Part shown: piece after piece, positions 12,070 to 50,608 of the stretch
Layout: every line of letters starts with the position of its first letter
Position numbering within the stretch: the first letter of the stretch is position 1
Source: a virus
Length of the DNA stretch: 64,000 nt
IMG/VR virus record: IMGVR_UViG_3300024239_000355
Coordinates: 62,001-126,000 of that record
Direction: 5' to 3' (one strand)
Notes under the pieces: model-generated
The model's input: only the letters and a program-made list of their open reading frames with translations
The model's database searches: none
What the model was told of the DNA's origin: nothing
Translations under genes and position numbers: made by a program

Positions 12070-12097
12070 AAACGGGGCGCCTTGCGACGCCCCGTTT
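12070..12097. terminator. Bidirectional terminator (tmRNA 3' side)
   Basis: Stem AAACGGGGCG(C/T)C with a short loop TTGC; T-rich on the minus strand (GTTTTGATT). Lies just after the tmRNA coding piece on the minus strand and after the small ORF on the plus strand. Confidence 0.75.
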
Positions 12098-12117
12098 ATT
12101 GGTTATTCTGTTGCCAG

Positions 12118-12420
12118 GGAACCAACCCCCACCTAACCGTTTGAGGGTTAGGGATTTACGGTTACCCGCGCTGCTACGCAGCGAGAGCGACAACCTCGCC
12201 GTTATCATTGGCAGTTGTTGTGTTTGGTCCGTGGACATTAGCCCCGGCGGTACCATACCGGCCAACTCCTTCGACCTTTTCTTGCGGCTCGATCCTAGTT
12301 CACCCCCATGCCACCCCGTGATAACTTCGGGAGAGATTTGGTGGAGGTGGGCGGTACTGCCCCGCCGTGACCTACAAGCTATTACGTCGCTATCATCGCT
12401 GACAGGGATATTTATATCGG
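12118..12420 (-). ncRNA. ssrA: Circularly permuted two-piece tmRNA (ssrA)
   Basis: On the minus strand an open frame encodes the tag ANDNGEVVALAA then TAG (12212-12174), which has the ANDN start and ALAA end of known SsrA degradation tags. Upstream, the RNA order is permuted: the acceptor piece comes first and ends CACCTCCACCA at 12339, with a T-stem GGCGG/CCGCC; after about 31 nt of spacer the coding piece starts GGGGGTG at 12307-12301. GGGGGTG pairs with CACCTCC to form a 7-bp acceptor stem (one G-U), and AGGATCGA resembles the D-loop. Permuted, two-piece tmRNA is typical of Alphaproteobacteria. It tags and frees ribosomes stalled on mRNAs without stop codons, using EF-Tu and SmpB. The 5' end of the acceptor piece and the 3' end of the coding piece are approximate. 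Confidence 0.88.
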
Positions 12421-12725
12421 TTTGTGTGTTGGGTGTCAATAACGATCTTTTTACCACGACCAACTTTCTTTGATTTTTCGACCGTGCAGAATTCCCGTAG
12501 CATCGCTTCATCGTCGCGATTGGAAATCTGCATGTGACATGACCAATCACCCCCTTGATGATGTAGGGGTGCTTCATATGGGTGGCACAAAAAACCGTGA
12601 GATCGTTTGTTCGTTTTCGTGAACCCATCTGGACCCCAGTGCGGTCCCTCGCTTTCGTCAATATCCAGCTTCTTATTGACTGAATGGACCACGAAGTCGG
12701 CAATCATTCCCGGTTCAAGATTCAA
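12393..12725 (-). CDS. Hypothetical protein upstream of tmRNA
   Basis: One hundred ten residues, MNLEPGMIADFVVHSVNKK at the start and a basic tail (KSKKVGRGKKIV). HGFLCHPYEAPLHHQGGDWSCH contains His/Cys that could bind metal. The stop lies close to, and may overlap, the start of the tmRNA acceptor piece. A competing 284-codon frame on the same strand crosses the tmRNA and is rejected. Function unknown. Confidence 0.55.
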   Translation of the reverse strand: MNLEPGMIADFVVHSVNKKLDIDESEGPHWGPDGFTKTNKRSHGFLCHPYEAPLHHQGGDWSCHMQISNRDDEAMLREFCTVEKSKKVGRGKKIVIDTQHTNRYKYPCQR

Positions 12726-18885: not shown

Positions 18886-20073
18886 TTACTTGATCACCTT
18901 GGTGACCACACCGGAACCAACCGTGCGTCCACCCTCGCGGATGGCGAAGCGCAGACCTTCGTCCATGGCGATGGGAGCCAGCAGTTCCACCGTGACTTTG
19001 GTATTGTCACCGGGCATCACCATTTCGGTACCTTCCGGCAGGCTGATAGTGCCAGTCACGTCCGTAGTACGGAAGTAGAACTGCGGACGATACTTGGTGA
19101 AGAACGGGGTGTGACGACCACCTTCGTCCTTGGTCAACACATACACCTCACCCTCGAACTGGGTGTGCGGGGTGATCGAACCCGGCGCGGCGAGAACCTG
19201 ACCACGCTCGACTTCATCGCGCTTGATGCCGCGCAGCAGAATGCCCGCGTTGTCACCGGCACGGGCATCGTCCAGCGACTTCTTGAACATTTCGATGCCG
19301 GTCACCGTGGTCTTGCGGCTCTCGCCCAGACCGACGATCTCGACTTCGTTGCCCACCTTGGTGGTGCCGCGCTCGACACGACCGGTCACCACGGTGCCGC
19401 GACCGGCGATGGAGAACACGTCTTCGATGGGCATGAGGAACGGCTTGTCGAGTTCCTGCACCGGCTGCGGGATGTAGGCGTCCACCGCTTCCATCAGCTT
19501 CAGGATGGCGTCACGACCCAGTTCCGGGTTGCGATCTTCCAGGGCACACAGAGCCGAACCACGGACGAACGGAATGTCGTCGCCGGGGAAGTCGTAGGAC
19601 GACAGAAGCTCGCGCATTTCCATTTCGACCAGATCGAGCAGTTCCGGATCATCCACCATGTCGCACTTGTTCAGGAAGACGACCAGGGCGGGCACGCCGA
19701 CCTGACGGGCGAGCAGGATGTGTTCGCGGGTCTGCGGCATGGCGCCGTCAGCAGCCGACACGACCAGAATGCCGCCGTCCATCTGGGCAGCACCAGTGAT
19801 CATGTTCTTCACATAGTCGGCGTGACCGGGGCAGTCCACGTGCGCGTAGTGGCGGTTCGCCGTCTCGTACTCGACGTGAGCGGTCGAAATGGTGATGCCA
19901 CGAGCCTTCTCTTCGGGCGCCTTGTCGATCTGGTCGTAAGCGGTGAATTCCGCGCCGCCAGTTTCCGCCAGCACCTTGGTGATCGCAGCAGTTAGGGATG
20001 TTTTCCCATGGTCTACATGGCCCACTGTGCCAATATTGCAGTGCGGCTTGGTACGCTCAAACTTTTCCGCCAT
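18886..20073 (-). CDS. tuf: Translation elongation factor EF-Tu
   Basis: Full-length EF-Tu of 395 residues; AAAGGA site fixes ATG 20073. All GTPase motifs are intact: GHVDHGKT (18-25), T61 in RGITI, DCPGH (80-84, catalytic His84), NKCD (135-138) and SAL (about 173). Domains 2 and 3 are complete ([48 protein letters not shown]). It delivers aminoacyl-tRNA, and Ala-tmRNA, to the ribosome. The sequence is close to alphaproteobacterial EF-Tu, and its GC content is higher than that of its neighbours, which suggests acquisition from a host. A GIY-YIG endonuclease gene lies head to head 50 bp away. Possible use: replacing a host EF-Tu that has been cleaved or modified by defence systems (inference). 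Confidence 0.96.
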
Positions 20074-20122
20074 TTTTCCGTCCTTTCGGCATAGGTACAA
20101 TCGGTCATGAATAAATACATTC

Positions 20123-20899
20123 ATGACTTACGAACTTTACTTGATCACAAACACCACCAACCAGAAACGCTACGTCGGTATCACCAAGGGCACCCATCTA
20201 ACGCGATGGAAGAAACACCTTTGGAACGCGGCGAAAGGGCGTGGTGGCAAACAGGTCGCACTATATAACGCAATCCGTAAGTACGGTAAAGAGGCATTCT
20301 GCGTCGAATGTATAGATTCGGCACCGGACTGGGATACGCTTCAAATGATGGAGATTGCCGCCATCGAGAAGTACAATACGTTCATCGAAGACGGCTGTGG
20401 GTATAACATGACCCGAGGCGGTGACGGTACTCAAGGGTACAAGTTCCGCCCAGATCAACGCGCCAAATCGCTTTCCGAAGAACATAAAGCCAACATCGCT
20501 GCCAACAACGCCAAGTATTGGCAGGGCAAAACCCATAGCGACCAAACCAAACAGAAATTGGCTACATATTCTGGGGACAAAAACTCACAAGCACGATCAT
20601 GCGTGGTTGATGGTATTCATTACCCCACTGTCACCGACGCCGCAAACGCACTTGGGATGTCCTATGCGGGTATGAAGAAACGACTTGGTAGCCCGAACTA
20701 CCCGACCTACCAATATCTGGGCGAACCGCGTGGTACCCGGTGTTCAGGATCATCAAACGGCAAATCCCGCAAAGTTCAGATAGGGGATCAGATATTTGAC
20801 AGTTTGAAGGAAGCGGGTGCATATCTGGGCATTCATCCGGACAACGTGCGTAACCGCATCAAGTCCCCGAATTTCCCGGATCACAATTATGCTAACTGA
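20123..20899 (+). CDS. GIY-YIG homing endonuclease with NUMOD-type repeats
   Basis: Two hundred fifty-eight residues. The GIY-YIG core is [18 protein letters not shown] at the N-terminus, followed by the conserved Arg (TRWKKHLW), a Tyr-bearing LYNAIRKYG segment and the Glu helix ([20 protein letters not shown]). The middle has [17 protein letters not shown] and the C-terminus two NUMOD1-like HTH units ([19 protein letters not shown] and [19 protein letters not shown]). Such enzymes cut an empty allele and spread by repair. Lies divergent from tuf, 49 bp away. Confidence 0.92.
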
Positions 20900-26715: not shown

Positions 26716-27465
26716 ATGTATCAAAAAACGTATAATTATTTGTATCGCATAACAAATCTTTTGAACGGCAAAATCTATATCGGATGTCATCAGACTAATG
26801 ATATGAACGACGGTTATATGGGTTCTGGTATTTTAATCAAACGAGCAATTGCGAAATATGGAATCCATAATTTCAAGAAAGAAATACTTGACTTTTATGA
26901 AGATGCAGAGAGCGTTTTTGAAGCAGAAAGAAAAATAGTTACTAAAGAATTTATTGATGATGACACTGATGGTATAGAACGAATACGCACCAGCCGTTCA
27001 AATAAAATATTAGCAAAAAATGAGATTGGTAATGCAATTTGCATTGAGAAGGATGATCCCCGATGGGAAACTAAAGAGCTTGTCGGATATACCACGGGCA
27101 AAGCTGTTTTGCGGGATGTCACGGGGCATATAGTTGTTACCACCACCGACGATCCTCGGTATATATCAGGCGAATTGGTTGGTTATACAAAAGGAAAAAT
27201 ATCAGTTAAAGATTCTTTTGGTAATTGTTTTTTGGTGTCAAAGGATGATCCTCGGTATATATCAGGTGAATTGGTGGGGGTGACAGCGGGTTCGACGCAG
27301 ACGGAAGAATCAAACAAATTACGTAGTCAAAAATTGCGCGGTCGCCCCAAGGACAAACGACCATTAGTTACATGTATTATTTGCAAGAAAACAACGGATG
27401 TAGCAAATTTTGCCAAGTGGCATTCTACATGCAGCATCCATCATAGCACAGAGGTCAACACATGA
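26716..27465 (+). CDS. GIY-YIG homing endonuclease (Seg-like) with three KDDPRY repeats
   Basis: Two hundred forty-nine residues. GIY-YIG core [18 protein letters not shown], then the Seg-type [16 protein letters not shown] and the Glu helix ([11 protein letters not shown]). Three repeats of [13 protein letters not shown]-type sequence follow at residues about 112-124, 146-158 and 178-190; two of them share nearly identical DNA (from 27149 and from 27244). The C-terminal CIICKK and C-x5-H-H suggests a zinc finger. AT-rich, and its stop overlaps the dnaK start (ATGA), so it is a free-standing endonuclease placed directly against dnaK. Confidence 0.88.
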
Positions 27466-29306
27466 CAGTTTTGGGAATTGATTTGGGTTCTACGAATTCG
27501 TGCGTCGGAATCATTGAGAACGGTAAGTATAAAATCATAGCCAACGCAGAAGGGTCGAATACAACACCATCTATTGTTGGTTTCACAAATGACGGTATCA
27601 CAGTCGGACAACCGGCCAAACGTCAGGCAGTGACCAATCCGGTAAACACGATTCATTTGTCCAAACGGCTCATCGGGCGTCGTTTTGATGATCCTTTAAT
27701 CAAACAGCATCAAGCATTGATTGCGTATGAAGTTGTACCATCAGAAAATGGTGATGCATGGATACAAACTGAAAAGGGAGCATACTCCCCATCACAAATT
27801 TCAGCATATGTATTATCCAAAATGAAGTCTACTGCCGAGGATTACCTCGGACACAAAGTTTCTCAAGCAGTTATCACCGTCCCGGCATATTTTAATGATG
27901 CACAACGACAAGCAACCAAGGACGCTGGGCGGATTGCCGGGTTGGATGTGATTAGGATAATAAATGAACCAACTGCTGCATGTTTGGCATATGGACTTGA
28001 TGGTAAAAAAGAAGGAATTATCGCGGTTGTAGACCTTGGTGGATCGACGTTCGACATTTCGATCCTCGAAATTGGGGATGGCGTGTTTGAGGTTCGCTCG
28101 ACCAATGGTGACACCTTCCTTGGTGGCGAAGACTTTGATAACGCCCTGATCGACCACCTCGCGGAAGAATTCCAGAAGACCACTGGGATCGATTTGCGCA
28201 AGGACGTGCTTGCTCTACAGCGTCTTCGCGAGGCTGCCGAGAAAGCAAAGATCGAACTGTCCGGGTCCATGCAGACGGATGTCAACCTTCCGTTCATAAC
28301 GGCTGACCAGACGGGTCCGAAGCATCTTCAGGTATCGATTACCCGTGCCAAATTCGAATCCCTGGTCGAACCGCTGATCCAGCGGACCCTTGAACCATGC
28401 CGCCAAGCATTGGTGGATGCCGGGGTGTCCCTATCCCAGGTTGATGAAATTGTACTGGTCGGTGGTATGACCCGGATGCCGCGCGTTCAGGCGGCGGTGA
28501 AGGCATTCTTCGGTAAAGAACCGCATAAGGGTGTGAACCCCGATGAAGTAGTTGCTGCTGGTGCTGCGATCCAGGCGGGTGTGCTTCAGGGGGACGTGAA
28601 AAACATCCTTTTGCTGGATGTGACACCATTGAGCCTGGGGATTGAAATTGGTGGTGGAATGTTTGCGCCGCTAATCCCACGTAATACCACGATCCCAACT
28701 AAGAAAAGCGACGTATTCACCACGGTACATGATAATCAGGACACGGTACAGATCGTTGTGTATCAAGGTGAGCGTCAGATTGCTCAACACAACAAACTCC
28801 TGGGGCAATTCCAGCTTACCGGCATTCGCCCGGCTCGTCGCGGCACTCCACAGATCGAAGTGACGTTCGATATCGACGCCAACGGCATGGTTCATGTCTC
28901 GGCAAAGGATCGCCAAACCGGCAACGAACAGCGCATTGAAATCACCGCCAATGGTGGTTTGACCGAAGATGATATACAGGCGATGATTCGGGACGCCGAA
29001 ATTCATGCCGAAGAAGACGCGGAACGTAAAAAGGTCATTGAAGGCAAGAACATGCTTGATGGCGTGATTGCGGCGGCTGAGAATGCCGTTGAAGAGCATG
29101 GGTCGTATGTCGATGGCGCTGCGCTGGAAAGCGTCCGTTCAGCCCTGGAAAACGCCCGTGCGTTGATGGAGAACCCCAACGCCACCTCTCAGAGCATTGC
29201 GGATGCCACCCAGCAGCTTTCCGACGTAATAACCACCCTGGCAAAAACGGCGCAAGCGACCCAGGAAGTCCAGACGGGGATTATTGACGGCGAAATCGTT
29301 GGATGA
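27462..29306 (+). CDS. dnaK: Hsp70 chaperone DnaK
   Basis: Six hundred fourteen residues. N-terminal ATPase motifs: [54 protein letters not shown]; substrate-binding domain follows ([19 protein letters not shown]) with the helical lid to about 590. The phosphate loop reads [11 protein letters not shown] where the family has GGGTFD, so one Gly is Ser. The C-terminus ends IIDGEIVG rather than the usual acidic EEVD-like tail. The first about 550 bp are AT-rich with different codon use, and the remainder is GC-rich: a mosaic next to a homing endonuclease. ATP-driven folding factor, probably for virion or replication proteins. No dnaJ or grpE seen in the window. Confidence 0.95.
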
Positions 29307-46593: not shown

Positions 46594-46616
46594 GCTAAAA
46601 CTCACAAACTATTTCA

Positions 46617-46626
46617 GATATTTAGC
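46617..46626 (-). promoter_or_regulatory. T4-like late promoter motif (GCTAAATATC)
   Basis: 24 bp upstream of ATG 46593. Confidence 0.5.
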
Positions 46627-46666
46627 ATTTGTATCAGACGTTTATATACAACCAGTCTGGATCAAC

Positions 46667-47017
46667 TCAATTATCTGATAAGTAACGAATCATTAAATCA
46701 GTAAGCCTATCGAGCTTAACATCAAGTTTTTCTTGACCATATCGAAGTTCATCGGCGCGTGCCGCTAAATTCTTATGATTTGCTTCGATGGTGGCAATCC
46801 GTTGTTCAATACCACTCATGTCACATTCTTCTTTGAGATCATCATAGGCTTTGACTACGTTTTTTTGGACATGCTCCATACGGGAAATGCGTTTTTCAAG
46901 CTCCATGTCAGCGCGTTTCCAATCCTCATTGGTTCGCGATTCTTGAAACATTTTCACAATCGCGAAAGCCAGCGCGAAAAGACCGCCTATTACAGTAATC
47001 GCCACTGGCCAATCCAT
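46667..47017 (-). CDS. Small membrane protein with coiled coil
   Basis: One hundred sixteen residues. One N-terminal transmembrane helix (WPVAITVIGGLFALAFAIV) followed by a long heptad coiled coil (RISRMEHVQKNVVKAYDDL; IATIEANHKNLAARADELR). Topology resembles phage holin/spanin-type or scaffold proteins, but lysis function is not shown. Late motif TAAATA at 47048-47054. Confidence 0.65.
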   Translation of the reverse strand: MDWPVAITVIGGLFALAFAIVKMFQESRTNEDWKRADMELEKRISRMEHVQKNVVKAYDDLKEECDMSGIEQRIATIEANHKNLAARADELRYGQEKLDVKLDRLTDLMIRYLSDN

Positions 47018-47047
47018 ATTGCACCGCCCTTAGTCGTAGTTACTATA

Positions 47048-47054
47048 TATTTAC
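47048..47054 (-). promoter_or_regulatory. T4-like late promoter motif (GTAAATA)
   Basis: 31 bp upstream of ATG 47017. Confidence 0.45.
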
Positions 47055-47126
47055 GTCTCAGAAGTTATATAATAAACCCACAGAGACTAAACTATTGTTA
47101 TTGTTTATGTTGTTACAAACAAAAAG

Positions 47127-47160
47127 AAAAGGCGGGATGTAATATACATCCCGCCTTTTT
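47127..47160. terminator. Bidirectional terminator
   Basis: AAAAGGCGGGATGT and complement with a 6-nt loop; T5 tracts at both ends. Ends the gene at 47176 (minus). Confidence 0.9.
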
Positions 47161-47175
47161 GTGGTCTAACGAAGA

Positions 47176-47586
47176 TTAGAGAACTTCGTTACGAACAACG
47201 GCGACGTTGTTGCCGCTGGTGTCACCAACGGAGAAGGAGAAACCTTCGATACCGTCGAGAGCCAGAGCAAGGTCTTCACCATCTTCACCCCAAGCACGGG
47301 TATGCTCGATGGCGAACTTGAAGGTGTAGACCGAAACCGTTGCGCCAGTGCCAGCAGCCGGGAGGTCGGCAATCGGACCAGTCTCGCTGGTGACGGTTAC
47401 ATCGCTCAGAATGACCGGCTGGGCACGCAGGTTGATGGTCTCAACCAGCTTGTCCAGGCTGTGCTGGGAAGCGTTAGCCGGGTTGCCAGTAACGCGAATG
47501 TCCACAAGGGTGCGGACAGTGAAGAAGTCCATATTGCCGGTAAGCTTCTCACCAGCGAAAACGTGACCGTGAACCTTCTCTACCAT
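47176..47586 (-). CDS. Virion-type protein (probably structural)
   Basis: One hundred thirty-six residues, rich in Val/Thr/Ala beta strands (MVEKVHGHVFAGEKLTGNM; VSVYTFKFAIEHTRAW) and a loop VGDTSGNNVAVV. Own late motif and terminator, so it is a single-gene late unit, as expected for an abundant structural protein. Family not recognised; a tail or decoration protein is possible. Confidence 0.65.
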   Translation of the reverse strand: MVEKVHGHVFAGEKLTGNMDFFTVRTLVDIRVTGNPANASQHSLDKLVETINLRAQPVILSDVTVTSETGPIADLPAAGTGATVSVYTFKFAIEHTRAWGEDGEDLALALDGIEGFSFSVGDTSGNNVAVVRNEVL

Positions 47587-47633
47587 GGTAATCTCCTAAA
47601 TTTCAATTATGGGTTCGGGGTGATCCCTTCTGA

Positions 47634-47642
47634 AATTATTTA
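47634..47642 (-). promoter_or_regulatory. T4-like late promoter motif (TAAATAATT)
   Basis: 48 bp upstream of ATG 47586, on the minus strand. Confidence 0.45.
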
Positions 47643-47713
47643 GCATCAATTTTTGAAGACTATTGGAAACCAGCTTTTCTGCGGTTTTTAACCCTTGGTC
47701 TTGTATTTATTCA

Positions 47714-47732
47714 CTTACACATGAGGTGTAAG
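47714..47732 (+). repeat. Left-end hairpin of an IS200/IS605-like element
   Basis: CTTACAC and GTGTAAG with loop ATGAG, just before the TnpB-derived gene. IS605-group elements have such subterminal hairpins. Confidence 0.45.
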
Positions 47733-47744
47733 CTAAATAGAATT

Positions 47745-48806
47745 ATGTGGCTTACATATCGATATCGCCTATACCCAACTACTACCCAGAAAGCAGCAAT
47801 TCACCGTATTTGTGGAAGCCAGCGGTGGGTGTGGAACATGCTGCTCGGGTTGAACATCAAACGATACCGAGAACGGCGGGACGTATTGTCATATCCGCAG
47901 ATGTGCGAAAAACTTCCCTTGCTCAAAACCCAATGCCCATGGCTTAAAGAAGTTCCATCACAAGCATTGCAGTATGTAGCGCGTGAACTCGACCGGGAAA
48001 TTCAGTGGCACCTACGCAACACGCAGTCGTTTCCTACCTTTCGTAAGAAAAAGGAAGCGCACGGCAAGTTCACCGTTCCTCAATTTGTGAAGCCGGGCAC
48101 CAAGACCATTACGATCCCGAAAGTCGGGGAAGTGCCATGGATTCGCCATAGCGACCATACACCAATCAACGGCGGGTCGGTTGTGTGGGATGGGGACCGG
48201 TACTTCATCGAGTTCCGGATAGAAATTACCCAGCGCCAACCCAAACGTGACATCCCAAAGACGCAGGCAATTGGTCTTGTTCTTGGATCGGAGCATTTCC
48301 TGACTGACTCGAACGGGGAGCAAATTACTATTCCCCCTACCGTCCCCAAAGCCACGGCACGCCTGGAACGACTTCAACGACAAATGAAGCGCAAGAAAAA
48401 TGGGAACAATCAGATCAAATTAGGAAAAGTAATCCGATGCCAGGAAATGCATCTTGCAGATGCGCGTCGAGATTTCTTTCACAAAATCAGTCGCTATCTA
48501 TTGATTCGCAACGACCTCATTTGTGTTGAAAACTCTCTGAGAACCAAAGAGGGTGATCTGTTCGTGGCGATTCTCAAGGGAAAAGCAGAACGGTACGGTA
48601 AAAAGGTCATCGTGATCGACCGTTTTCATCCGTCCCATCTAACCTGTCATGCCTGTGGACAAAAAGAAGTCACCATGACCGGGTGCGGTTCTTGCGGCAC
48701 TACGTTCAGTCCATGGATCAATGGAGCCATAAACGCCCTGGAATGGGGCTACAAACAATACCGCCGGGGCGGCGGTAATCTACGCCTTTCAGATACGAGT
48801 GCGTAA
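47745..48806 (+). CDS. TnpB-derived protein with damaged RuvC site (nuclease-dead, TldR-like)
   Basis: About 353 residues from MWLTYRYRLYPT; ATG 47721 is an alternative. TnpB layout is clear: N-terminal RNA-binding fold (RWVWNMLLGLNIKRY), a WED-like core, RuvC-I at AIGLVLGSEHFLTDSNG, RuvC-II at DLICVENSLR, and a zinc ribbon (C301, C304, C314, C317). In active TnpB, RuvC-I is GIDLG: here the Asp is Val179. The last catalytic Asp before NAA-NI is Trp324 (FSPWINGAIN). Only Glu262 remains. The region between RuvC-II and the zinc ribbon is shortened. TldR proteins are nuclease-dead TnpB descendants that use a guide RNA to repress promoters. No tnpA nearby; orientation is opposite to the flanking structural genes. 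Confidence 0.82.
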   Translation: MWLTYRYRLYPTTTQKAAIHRICGSQRWVWNMLLGLNIKRYRERRDVLSYPQMCEKLPLLKTQCPWLKEVPSQALQYVARELDREIQWHLRNTQSFPTFRKKKEAHGKFTVPQFVKPGTKTITIPKVGEVPWIRHSDHTPINGGSVVWDGDRYFIEFRIEITQRQPKRDIPKTQAIGLVLGSEHFLTDSNGEQITIPPTVPKATARLERLQRQMKRKKNGNNQIKLGKVIRCQEMHLADARRDFFHKISRYLLIRNDLICVENSLRTKEGDLFVAILKGKAERYGKKVIVIDRFHPSHLTCHACGQKEVTMTGCGSCGTTFSPWINGAINALEWGYKQYRRGGGNLRLSDTSA

Positions 48807-48880
48807 GTCCAAGTAGTCGGAAGACCAATTGGCCGCATTCGGGGAAGGAAGCCGCAAGGCAGCCCACACCAGTGTACCTT
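48807..48880 (+). ncRNA. Candidate guide-RNA region (omega/TldR RNA) and right end
   Basis: Directly downstream of the TnpB-derived gene, with GGAAGCCGCAAGGC (GCC/GGC hairpin) and CACACcaGTGT (48865-48875), similar in layout to the right ends of IS605-type elements, where the guide RNA scaffold lies. Boundaries and guide are guesses; the guide would start at about 48876. Confidence 0.35.
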
Positions 48881-48886
48881 GATATC

Positions 48887-50608
48887 TTACCGCCGAATAA
48901 GTACCGGCTTCGCAGGTTTCTTCTTTTTGCCTTTCTTAGGCGGGTAAATCGAAGCATTCGGGTCGCCTGCACCCAACGCGGTGGCAGCAGTCGCGACACA
49001 GCCCGCTGTGGTGCCGTTTTCGATGATGGTGTTACCCTGGTGTTGGAATGACGGCCCAACGAAGCCAGCGCGGGCGCTAACGCCCTTATTGGCGGTACCC
49101 GGCGGATCGTACTTAATGTGCTTCTCTGCCTTATCGAAACCAGCATCATCGGACTGGTAATTACCCTTTGTCCGTTTCTTCTTGGCTTCGTCAACCATGC
49201 TCTTATAGGCATCTCCAAGAGCCTCTTCGGGTTCATTACCCTCAACATCCCCACCCGCAGCCATGGTATCTCCCCACTTTTTAAAGGATACCGAAACGGC
49301 TTCTGGTTTAGATGGTTTTGTTGGCTGTGTGGCAATTGGGGTATCGAATACGTTCAGATCACCTTCAACGTCATCTTCCGTTGCAAACTCAAATTCGTTC
49401 GTATCGGTCTCATCTTCACGGTGATTAATTTCAAAATACATCACCGGCTCGTGACCAAATTTCTTAGTAAACATTCGGACGATATCAACCGCATCATAGT
49501 CCAACTCAGCAGCCACGCCCGCAACGATATCATTGATTAATGCAGAATACGGACCAAAAATTGCATTCTTGTCACGCAGATACTTGCTCATTTTAGACAG
49601 AACTCGATTAGCGATCTTGTCCTCGTCATCAGAGGCGTCCTTTTCAGGTGCTACCGTATCATGTCGCACATTATATTTACGCAGTACGTCATCGGTGTAA
49701 GACGGCTCGTGATTTGGTTCAGCGTTGTTTGGTACCGCCGTATCAGTACGGGGTGGAAGCGATGCATAAATGGACGGATCATCACTGACCGGGGCTTCCG
49801 CTCCATCGACTTCCGTTCCGTCAACATCAGCCGATTCGCCCATATGCATCAACTTACGCCCAAGTTTATACCCGAGATAAGTCGCACCCAATACCGCAGC
49901 ACCTTTCAGAAGCTTATTACCAGACCCAGATGCCCCAGTGGTTCCGGTGTTGGTTTCGGGATTATTAACCCCTTTAAGCTCAAGTTTTTGTGCCTTTGCC
50001 AGTTGTTCCAAATACGGAAGAAGCTCACTTTTCTTGGCTCGGGTACGGAGAGCCAAAAGAAGCCGCGTCATTGTAAGCTGCTTTTCGGAATGATTTAGGT
50101 CTTCCCAATCTATAATCAAACGACGAATTGCGCGATAACCCGAATCCCGTATATTAAGAGCATTTTCCATTTTAAGCAAAAAACGTCGATCCATGTTAAT
50201 ATCAGTATCATTTTGCGCCACCATCCGAAGCCAGCGCACAATATCAACTTCACGAGCATCTACATCTTCAAGATGAGTGCGGCTGGCATCCGGTTTCTTG
50301 TACTTTCCCTCATTGCCATTTAACAATTGAAATAACAGCAAATAAAGATCGGTACCCATACGCCGAAGCTGCTTAAAATGTCCATACATAACGGTTGCCT
50401 TGGCGTATTTGGCTGCCACAGGCGCGAAATCAAACTCGCTCTTAAGAATTTTCAAGGAGAGAAGATAGAGGAAGATAAAATCCGTGACATCTTTGGCAGT
50501 ATAATTACCAAATGCCTTTTCGTTACGGATCAAGGTAGACTCAAGCATACCGTCCACAACTTGATATTCGCCGTCTACGAAATTATTCAGAAAGGTCTTC
50601 TCGCTCAT
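48887..50608 (-). CDS. Large virion-type protein
   Basis: Five hundred seventy-three residues from MSEKTFLNNFVDGEYQVV (GAGGT site and late motif support ATG 50608; the longer frame upstream is not coding). Helical N-terminal half (VTDFIFLYLLSLKIL; LRRMGTDLYLLLFQLL), a low-complexity middle with a short hydrophobic stretch (LLKGAAVLGATYLGYKLG, about 246-263), an Asp/Glu region, and a Lys-rich tail ending KPVLIRR. No family recognised. Confidence 0.7.
   Translation of the reverse strand: MSEKTFLNNFVDGEYQVVDGMLESTLIRNEKAFGNYTAKDVTDFIFLYLLSLKILKSEFDFAPVAAKYAKATVMYGHFKQLRRMGTDLYLLLFQLLNGNEGKYKKPDASRTHLEDVDAREVDIVRWLRMVAQNDTDINMDRRFLLKMENALNIRDSGYRAIRRLIIDWEDLNHSEKQLTMTRLLLALRTRAKKSELLPYLEQLAKAQKLELKGVNNPETNTGTTGASGSGNKLLKGAAVLGATYLGYKLGRKLMHMGESADVDGTEVDGAEAPVSDDPSIYASLPPRTDTAVPNNAEPNHEPSYTDDVLRKYNVRHDTVAPEKDASDDEDKIANRVLSKMSKYLRDKNAIFGPYSALINDIVAGVAAELDYDAVDIVRMFTKKFGHEPVMYFEINHREDETDTNEFEFATEDDVEGDLNVFDTPIATQPTKPSKPEAVSVSFKKWGDTMAAGGDVEGNEPEEALGDAYKSMVDEAKKKRTKGNYQSDDAGFDKAEKHIKYDPPGTANKGVSARAGFVGPSFQHQGNTIIENGTTAGCVATAATALGAGDPNASIYPPKKGKKKKPAKPVLIRR

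What the first reader, a model, noticed from the sequence alone, without database searches (positions are those of the whole stretch)
47714..48880. Nuclease-dead TnpB (TldR-like) gene in a late structural cluster
RuvC-I Asp is Val179 and the last RuvC Asp is Trp324, while Glu262, the zinc ribbon and the RNA-binding N-terminus are kept; the RuvC-II to zinc-ribbon segment is shortened. TldR proteins repress promoters by guide RNA. A copy in a giant phage, with an intact frame and left/right hairpins but no tnpA, could be an RNA-guided regulator of host or phage genes.
Basis: partly seen in the sequence, partly recalled or inferred. Interest (0 to 1): 0.92.

Follow-up and report, generated by a model that had tools for sequence, protein, structure and literature searches.

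The report
Nuclease-dead TnpB in a jumbo phage
A giant bacteriophage carries a gene for an RNA-guided DNA-cutting protein (TnpB) that has lost its cutting residues but kept its overall fold, an unbroken reading frame and part of its guide-RNA scaffold, so it may now bind DNA without cutting it; what it binds is unknown.

Summary
Window 47721 (more likely 47745) to 48806, + strand, encodes a TnpB whose first and last RuvC aspartates are Val and Trp (residues 187 and 332 from 47721; 179 and 324 from 47745). The RuvC-II Glu and four zinc cysteines remain. Of 166 relatives, 165 keep Asp-Glu-Asp; the other is only truncated. About 14 lid and 6 zinc-ribbon residues are deleted.

It is not simple decay. 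The protein is far more diverged than any relative (32 of 80 conserved columns lost), yet the frame is open; simulated neutral drift that far gives about 8 stops (0 of 200 runs intact). The predicted fold matches solved TnpB (TM 0.81). The 5' guide-RNA scaffold is found at the expected place by a covariance model built without it, although the nearest relative reads that DNA in another codon frame. The 3' scaffold end is altered; its model does not recognise it.

The gene is an insertion absent from the same site in related jumbo phages, with no tnpA in the 195-kb record. No convincing guide target, orthologue or cargo gene was found. Best reading: a nuclease-dead, probably RNA-guided DNA-binding protein that works like TldR; TldR membership is not shown.

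The parts
47721..48806 (+). nuclease-dead tnpB gene (361 aa; likelier start ATG 47745, 353 aa)
48279..48281 (+). codon GTT, Val187 in place of the RuvC-I Asp
48528..48530 (+). codon of Glu270, RuvC-II Glu, kept
48714..48716 (+). codon TGG, Trp332 in place of the last RuvC Asp
48755..48792 (+). 5' module of the omega (guide) RNA scaffold, overlapping the end of the gene
   Evidence: covariance model R2, 19.7 bits, E 0.0012, best hit in 64 kb; read in another codon frame in L009
48785..48790 (+). 5' arm CCUUUC of a long-range helix of the RNA
   Evidence: nearest kin have CCUG pairing with CAGG
48843..48848 (+). 3' arm GGAAGG of that helix
48851..48860 (+). short terminal hairpin GCC-GCAA-GGC
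48861..48867 (+). inferred 3' end of the scaffold, AGCCCAC where kin have TAGTTCAC
   Evidence: comparison; not recognised by model R1
48868..48887 (+). candidate guide, ACCAGTGTACCTTGATATCT
   Evidence: inferred from the family boundary; expression untested
47706..47710 (+). candidate TAM, TTTAT
   Evidence: TTTAT also precedes the left ends of L009 and L190; weak
47714..47732 (+). candidate left-end hairpin, 7 bp
   Evidence: P 0.066 in shuffles; weak

Best explanation
An IS605-type TnpB element inserted between two genes of a jumbo phage, lost tnpA and both catalytic aspartates of its RuvC domain, and was then kept as a protein-RNA pair. Most likely the protein still binds its own omega RNA, made from the gene's 3' end, and uses the guide that starts near 48868, beside a T-rich TAM, to bind DNA without cutting it, acting as an RNA-guided roadblock to transcription in the way TldR does. 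Shown here: loss of the active site, kept fold, open frame despite deep divergence, RNA-level conservation of the 5' scaffold. Inferred: RNA binding, DNA binding, repression and the identity of the target.
For: Val-Glu-Trp against Asp-Glu-Asp in 165 of 166 relatives. 32 of 80 conserved columns lost but none of 13 in residues 16-90. Neutral drift to that extent leaves no open frame in 200 runs. Confident model, TM 0.81 to the TnpB-omegaRNA-DNA complex 8h1j. Model R2, built without the query, finds the 5' scaffold at 48755-48792 as the best hit in 64 kb. The same DNA is 83% identical in L009 although read in another codon frame. Long-range RNA helix kept with changed letters on both sides. No tnpA.
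Against: No target beyond chance for the guide in the record. No orthologue above about 36% identity, so no direct dN/dS. No linked cargo gene. Model R1 of the RNA 3' end fails on the query. N-terminal retention was a split chosen after seeing the data. Expression unknown.
Confidence: 0.58

Rival explanations
1. A dying TnpB: nuclease lost recently, no function, the open frame survives by chance until it is deleted.
For: Singleton insertion absent from the same site in related phages. Both active-site residues, the lid and the RNA 3' end are altered.
Against: Losses at conserved columns far exceed any relative's, yet the frame is open; drift to that extent gives about 8 stops. The fold is confidently predicted. 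If much of the divergence predates inactivation this argument weakens.
Confidence: 0.17
2. It is kept for RNA or protein binding other than guided DNA targeting, for example as a dominant-negative or immunity factor against active TnpBs of related elements.
For: The N-terminal, RNA-contacting part is the best kept. A related 457-kb phage has an intact TnpB. The altered RNA 3' end would fit loss of guide use.
Against: The four zinc cysteines and the overall bilobed fold are kept. No direct evidence for an antagonist role.
Confidence: 0.14
3. It is still a nuclease with a rearranged active site.
For: Rearranged RuvC-II Glu positions are known in some TnpB and Fanzor proteins (own knowledge).
Against: By sequence, neither lost Asp has an acidic residue at a replacing position: D196 is shared with the active-type relative L009 and the segment FSPWINGAINAL has no acid before E341.
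Confidence: 0.03

Closest known systems
TldR, TnpB-like nuclease-dead repressors, e.g. the fliC-associated TldR of an Enterobacter prophage (PMC13418256)
   Same: TnpB with inactivated RuvC, no transposase, encoded by a phage, guide-RNA scaffold at the gene's 3' end
   Different: No target found, no linked cargo gene, no clade of orthologues; jumbo-phage setting; lid and zinc-ribbon deletions; altered RNA 3' end. No known TldR sequence was aligned here.
IS605-type TnpB, nearest relative L009 (IMG/VR contig 3300004770_001954) and solved ISDra2 TnpB (8h1j)
   Same: Fold (TM 0.81), domain order, four zinc cysteines, 5' RNA scaffold
   Different: L009 and ISDra2 keep Asp-Glu-Asp; about 33-36% identity to L009; canonical TAGTTCAC RNA end in L009
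Cas12m, a Cas12 that binds DNA without double-strand cutting (PMC11013384)
   Same: Related RuvC fold and a binding-only mode of action (8hhm)
   Different: CRISPR effector with crRNA array; structural match far weaker than to TnpB

Membership tests
TnpB superfamily | OrfB/TnpB sequence profile and fold | tested here: met
TnpB superfamily | Asp-Glu-Asp RuvC catalytic triad of an RNA-guided nuclease | tested here: not met
   Val-Glu-Trp
TnpB superfamily | omega RNA scaffold at the 3' end of the gene, ending at the element boundary | tested here: inconclusive
   5' module met; 3' end not recognised
TldR | TnpB with inactivated RuvC | tested here: met
TldR | kept guide-RNA scaffold beside the gene | tested here: inconclusive
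TldR | guide matching a genomic target beside a TAM | tested here: inconclusive
   none beyond chance in 195 kb; one weak lead, P 0.01-0.1; host genome not available
TldR | genetic association with a non-transposon gene across a clade (many, not all, TldRs) | tested here: not met
   no orthologues found; site empty in relatives
TldR | RNA-guided repression of transcription | not testable with these tools
   needs RIP-seq, ChIP-seq or a reporter assay

The most novel reading that the evidence does not exclude
An independently evolved RNA-guided DNA-binding regulator in a jumbo phage whose TAM (TTTAT) is the complement of the core of the phage group's own NATAAATA late-promoter-like motif, so that the complex binds late promoters, or the empty allele of competing sister phages, and blocks late transcription. 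The motif lies upstream of the neighbouring 136-aa gene in most relatives and TTTAT adjoins the putative left end; the rest is conjecture.
Probability: 0.08. Interest if true: 0.85.

Novelty: new variant of a known kind. Interest (0 to 1): 0.57.

Why it matters
Nuclease-dead TnpBs that act as RNA-guided repressors are described from prophages and bacterial chromosomes (PMC13418256). A selected copy in a jumbo phage would be an independent origin of RNA-guided DNA binding in a setting where it could act on the host, on the phage's own genes or on rival phages, and it gives a compact dead effector with a partly defined scaffold to test.

Tried and rejected
Single-sequence searches for close relatives of the protein and of the flanking genes found nothing; alignments were needed. 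DNA search of 46600-50600 in GenBank phages: no match. Rfam on the locus: nothing. Covariance model of the RNA 3' end: no hit in the window. Guide 18-mer in viral contigs: none. Guide against the record with several boundaries and TAMs: chance-level matches plus one weak lead. A 10-nt match at record 173,280 lies inside a tail-like gene and is expected by chance. Automated counts of the long-range RNA helix over all relatives were noisy (22 of 50 and 24 of 59 fully paired, against shuffled maxima of 15 and 16), so the helix is support, not proof. A claim that lost residues as a whole are concentrated in the nuclease half was not made, because only the 16-90 segment stands out. Sequencing error rejected: Asp to Trp needs three base changes. 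The original TldR paper was not in the library, so its criteria come from PMC13418256 and own knowledge.

Full report
What is there. The ORF at 47721-48806 (+) is a TnpB homologue by Pfam, PHROGs and NCBIfam. ATG 47745 is the likelier start because it aligns with the start of the nearest relative. Aligned with 166 relatives from phages, viral contigs, bacteria and archaea, the catalytic triad reads Val-Glu-Trp here and Asp-Glu-Asp in 165 of them; the other is only truncated. The segment after the RuvC-II Glu has lost about 14 residues of the lid and the zinc ribbon 6 residues, with all four Cys kept. Most relatives were fetched with patterns covering the catalytic motifs, so the sample leans toward intact proteins, although the patterns also admitted the query's residues.

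Decaying or kept? The query departs from 32 of 80 columns that are at least 80% conserved; other members depart from 5.8 on average and 21 at most. None of the 13 conserved columns in residues 16-90 is lost, against 32 of 67 elsewhere (Fisher P = 0.001, with a split chosen after seeing the data). Its end branch in a tree is 2.17 changes per column against a median of 0.24. Random mutation of the query's or three relatives' genes until a third of residues had changed gave about 8 stop codons on average and never an open frame in 200 runs. The actual frame is open, and codon-position GC resembles neighbouring phage genes. AlphaFold gives a confident model (pLDDT 89.7) that matches the TnpB-omegaRNA-DNA complex 8h1j with TM 0.81. 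So the protein was under selection during most of its divergence. This argues against a functionless remnant but does not name the function, and it is weaker if much of the divergence came before inactivation.

The RNA. In the family the RNA ends in AAGCC-hairpin-GGGTAGTTCAC and the guide follows, a boundary confirmed by pairs of related elements with different flanks. A covariance model of the 5' module, built from 22 relatives without the query, finds 48755-48792 (+) as the best hit in 64 kb, 19.7 bits, E = 0.0012; E-values of this tool are rough. On sequences outside the model it scored 50 bits in L190 but only 12.8 in L191, so its sensitivity is moderate. Query and L009 share 83% of 41 nt there although L009 reads them in a different codon frame, so RNA rather than protein explains the conservation. 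The 3' side is weaker. A helix CCUUUC/GGAAGG forms where nearest kin have CCUG/CAGG. A short GCC-GCAA-GGC hairpin and AGCCCAC stand where kin have the long hairpin and TAGTTCAC, but the model of that end does not recognise it. The guide would start at about 48868.

Setting. The record is 195,192 bp. Flanking genes match jumbo phages Phosso (Sinorhizobium) and Atu_ph07 (Agrobacterium), and an alphaproteobacterial-type tmRNA lies at 12097-12443 (-), so the host is probably an alphaproteobacterium. In Phosso the gene ending VIRR is followed after 54 nt by the 136-aa gene, with no tnpB between; the other syntenic loci hold no tnpB either. A related 457-kb phage has an intact TnpB elsewhere in its genome. 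The record has no Y1 tnpA. The left end may be TTTAT at 47706-47710 plus a hairpin at 47714-47732; TTTAT also precedes the left ends of the nearest elements L009 and L190. TTTAT is the complement of the core of NATAAATA, a motif upstream of the 136-aa gene in most relatives and present 55 times in this record. That is noted as an idea, not a result.

Target. No site in the record matches the candidate guide beyond chance under the TAMs tried. The best lead, TTTATT followed by CCAGTGTAC at record position about 151,830 inside a tail-like gene, has P = 0.01 if only TTTAT is allowed and 0.1 over five TAMs. The host and the rest of the phage are not available.

Comparison. It resembles a TldR on the features that could be tested: dead RuvC, kept fold, scaffold kept in part, no transposase, phage location. 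Published TldRs have a target and many have a linked gene (PMC13418256); neither was found here. I therefore call it a nuclease-dead TnpB that probably binds DNA under RNA guidance, and leave TldR membership open.

Noticed in passing
window 18886-20124 (-): A full-length elongation factor Tu gene (751 bits, far over the NCBIfam cut-off) in a phage record, with a GIY-YIG group I intron-type endonuclease gene directly beside it at 20123-20899 (+).
   Followed up: partly
window 27462-29306 (+): A full-length DnaK chaperone gene, with a second weaker GIY-YIG endonuclease gene at 26716-27465 (+) directly upstream.
   Followed up: partly
window 12097-12443 (-): A tmRNA of the alphaproteobacterial two-piece type (Rfam RF01849, 132.6 bits; ARAGORN tag ANDNGEVVALAA), a strong hint to the host group.
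   Followed up: partly
L190:2655-3051 (IMG/VR contig 3300021083_000185): An internally deleted L009-type element that keeps the tnpB N-terminus, the last zinc-ribbon half and the whole guide-RNA end in one open frame of 123 aa.
   Followed up: partly
record G000, 55 sites; e.g. window 43982, 44759, 44791 (-): NATAAATA motifs resembling T4-type late promoters; 30 of 55 have a ribosome-binding-like motif within 82 nt downstream, without a control for chance.
   Followed up: partly
L191:526-1830 (457-kb phage IMG/VR 3300021979_000001): An intact-triad TnpB in a related jumbo phage, at a different place in the genome.
   Followed up: partly
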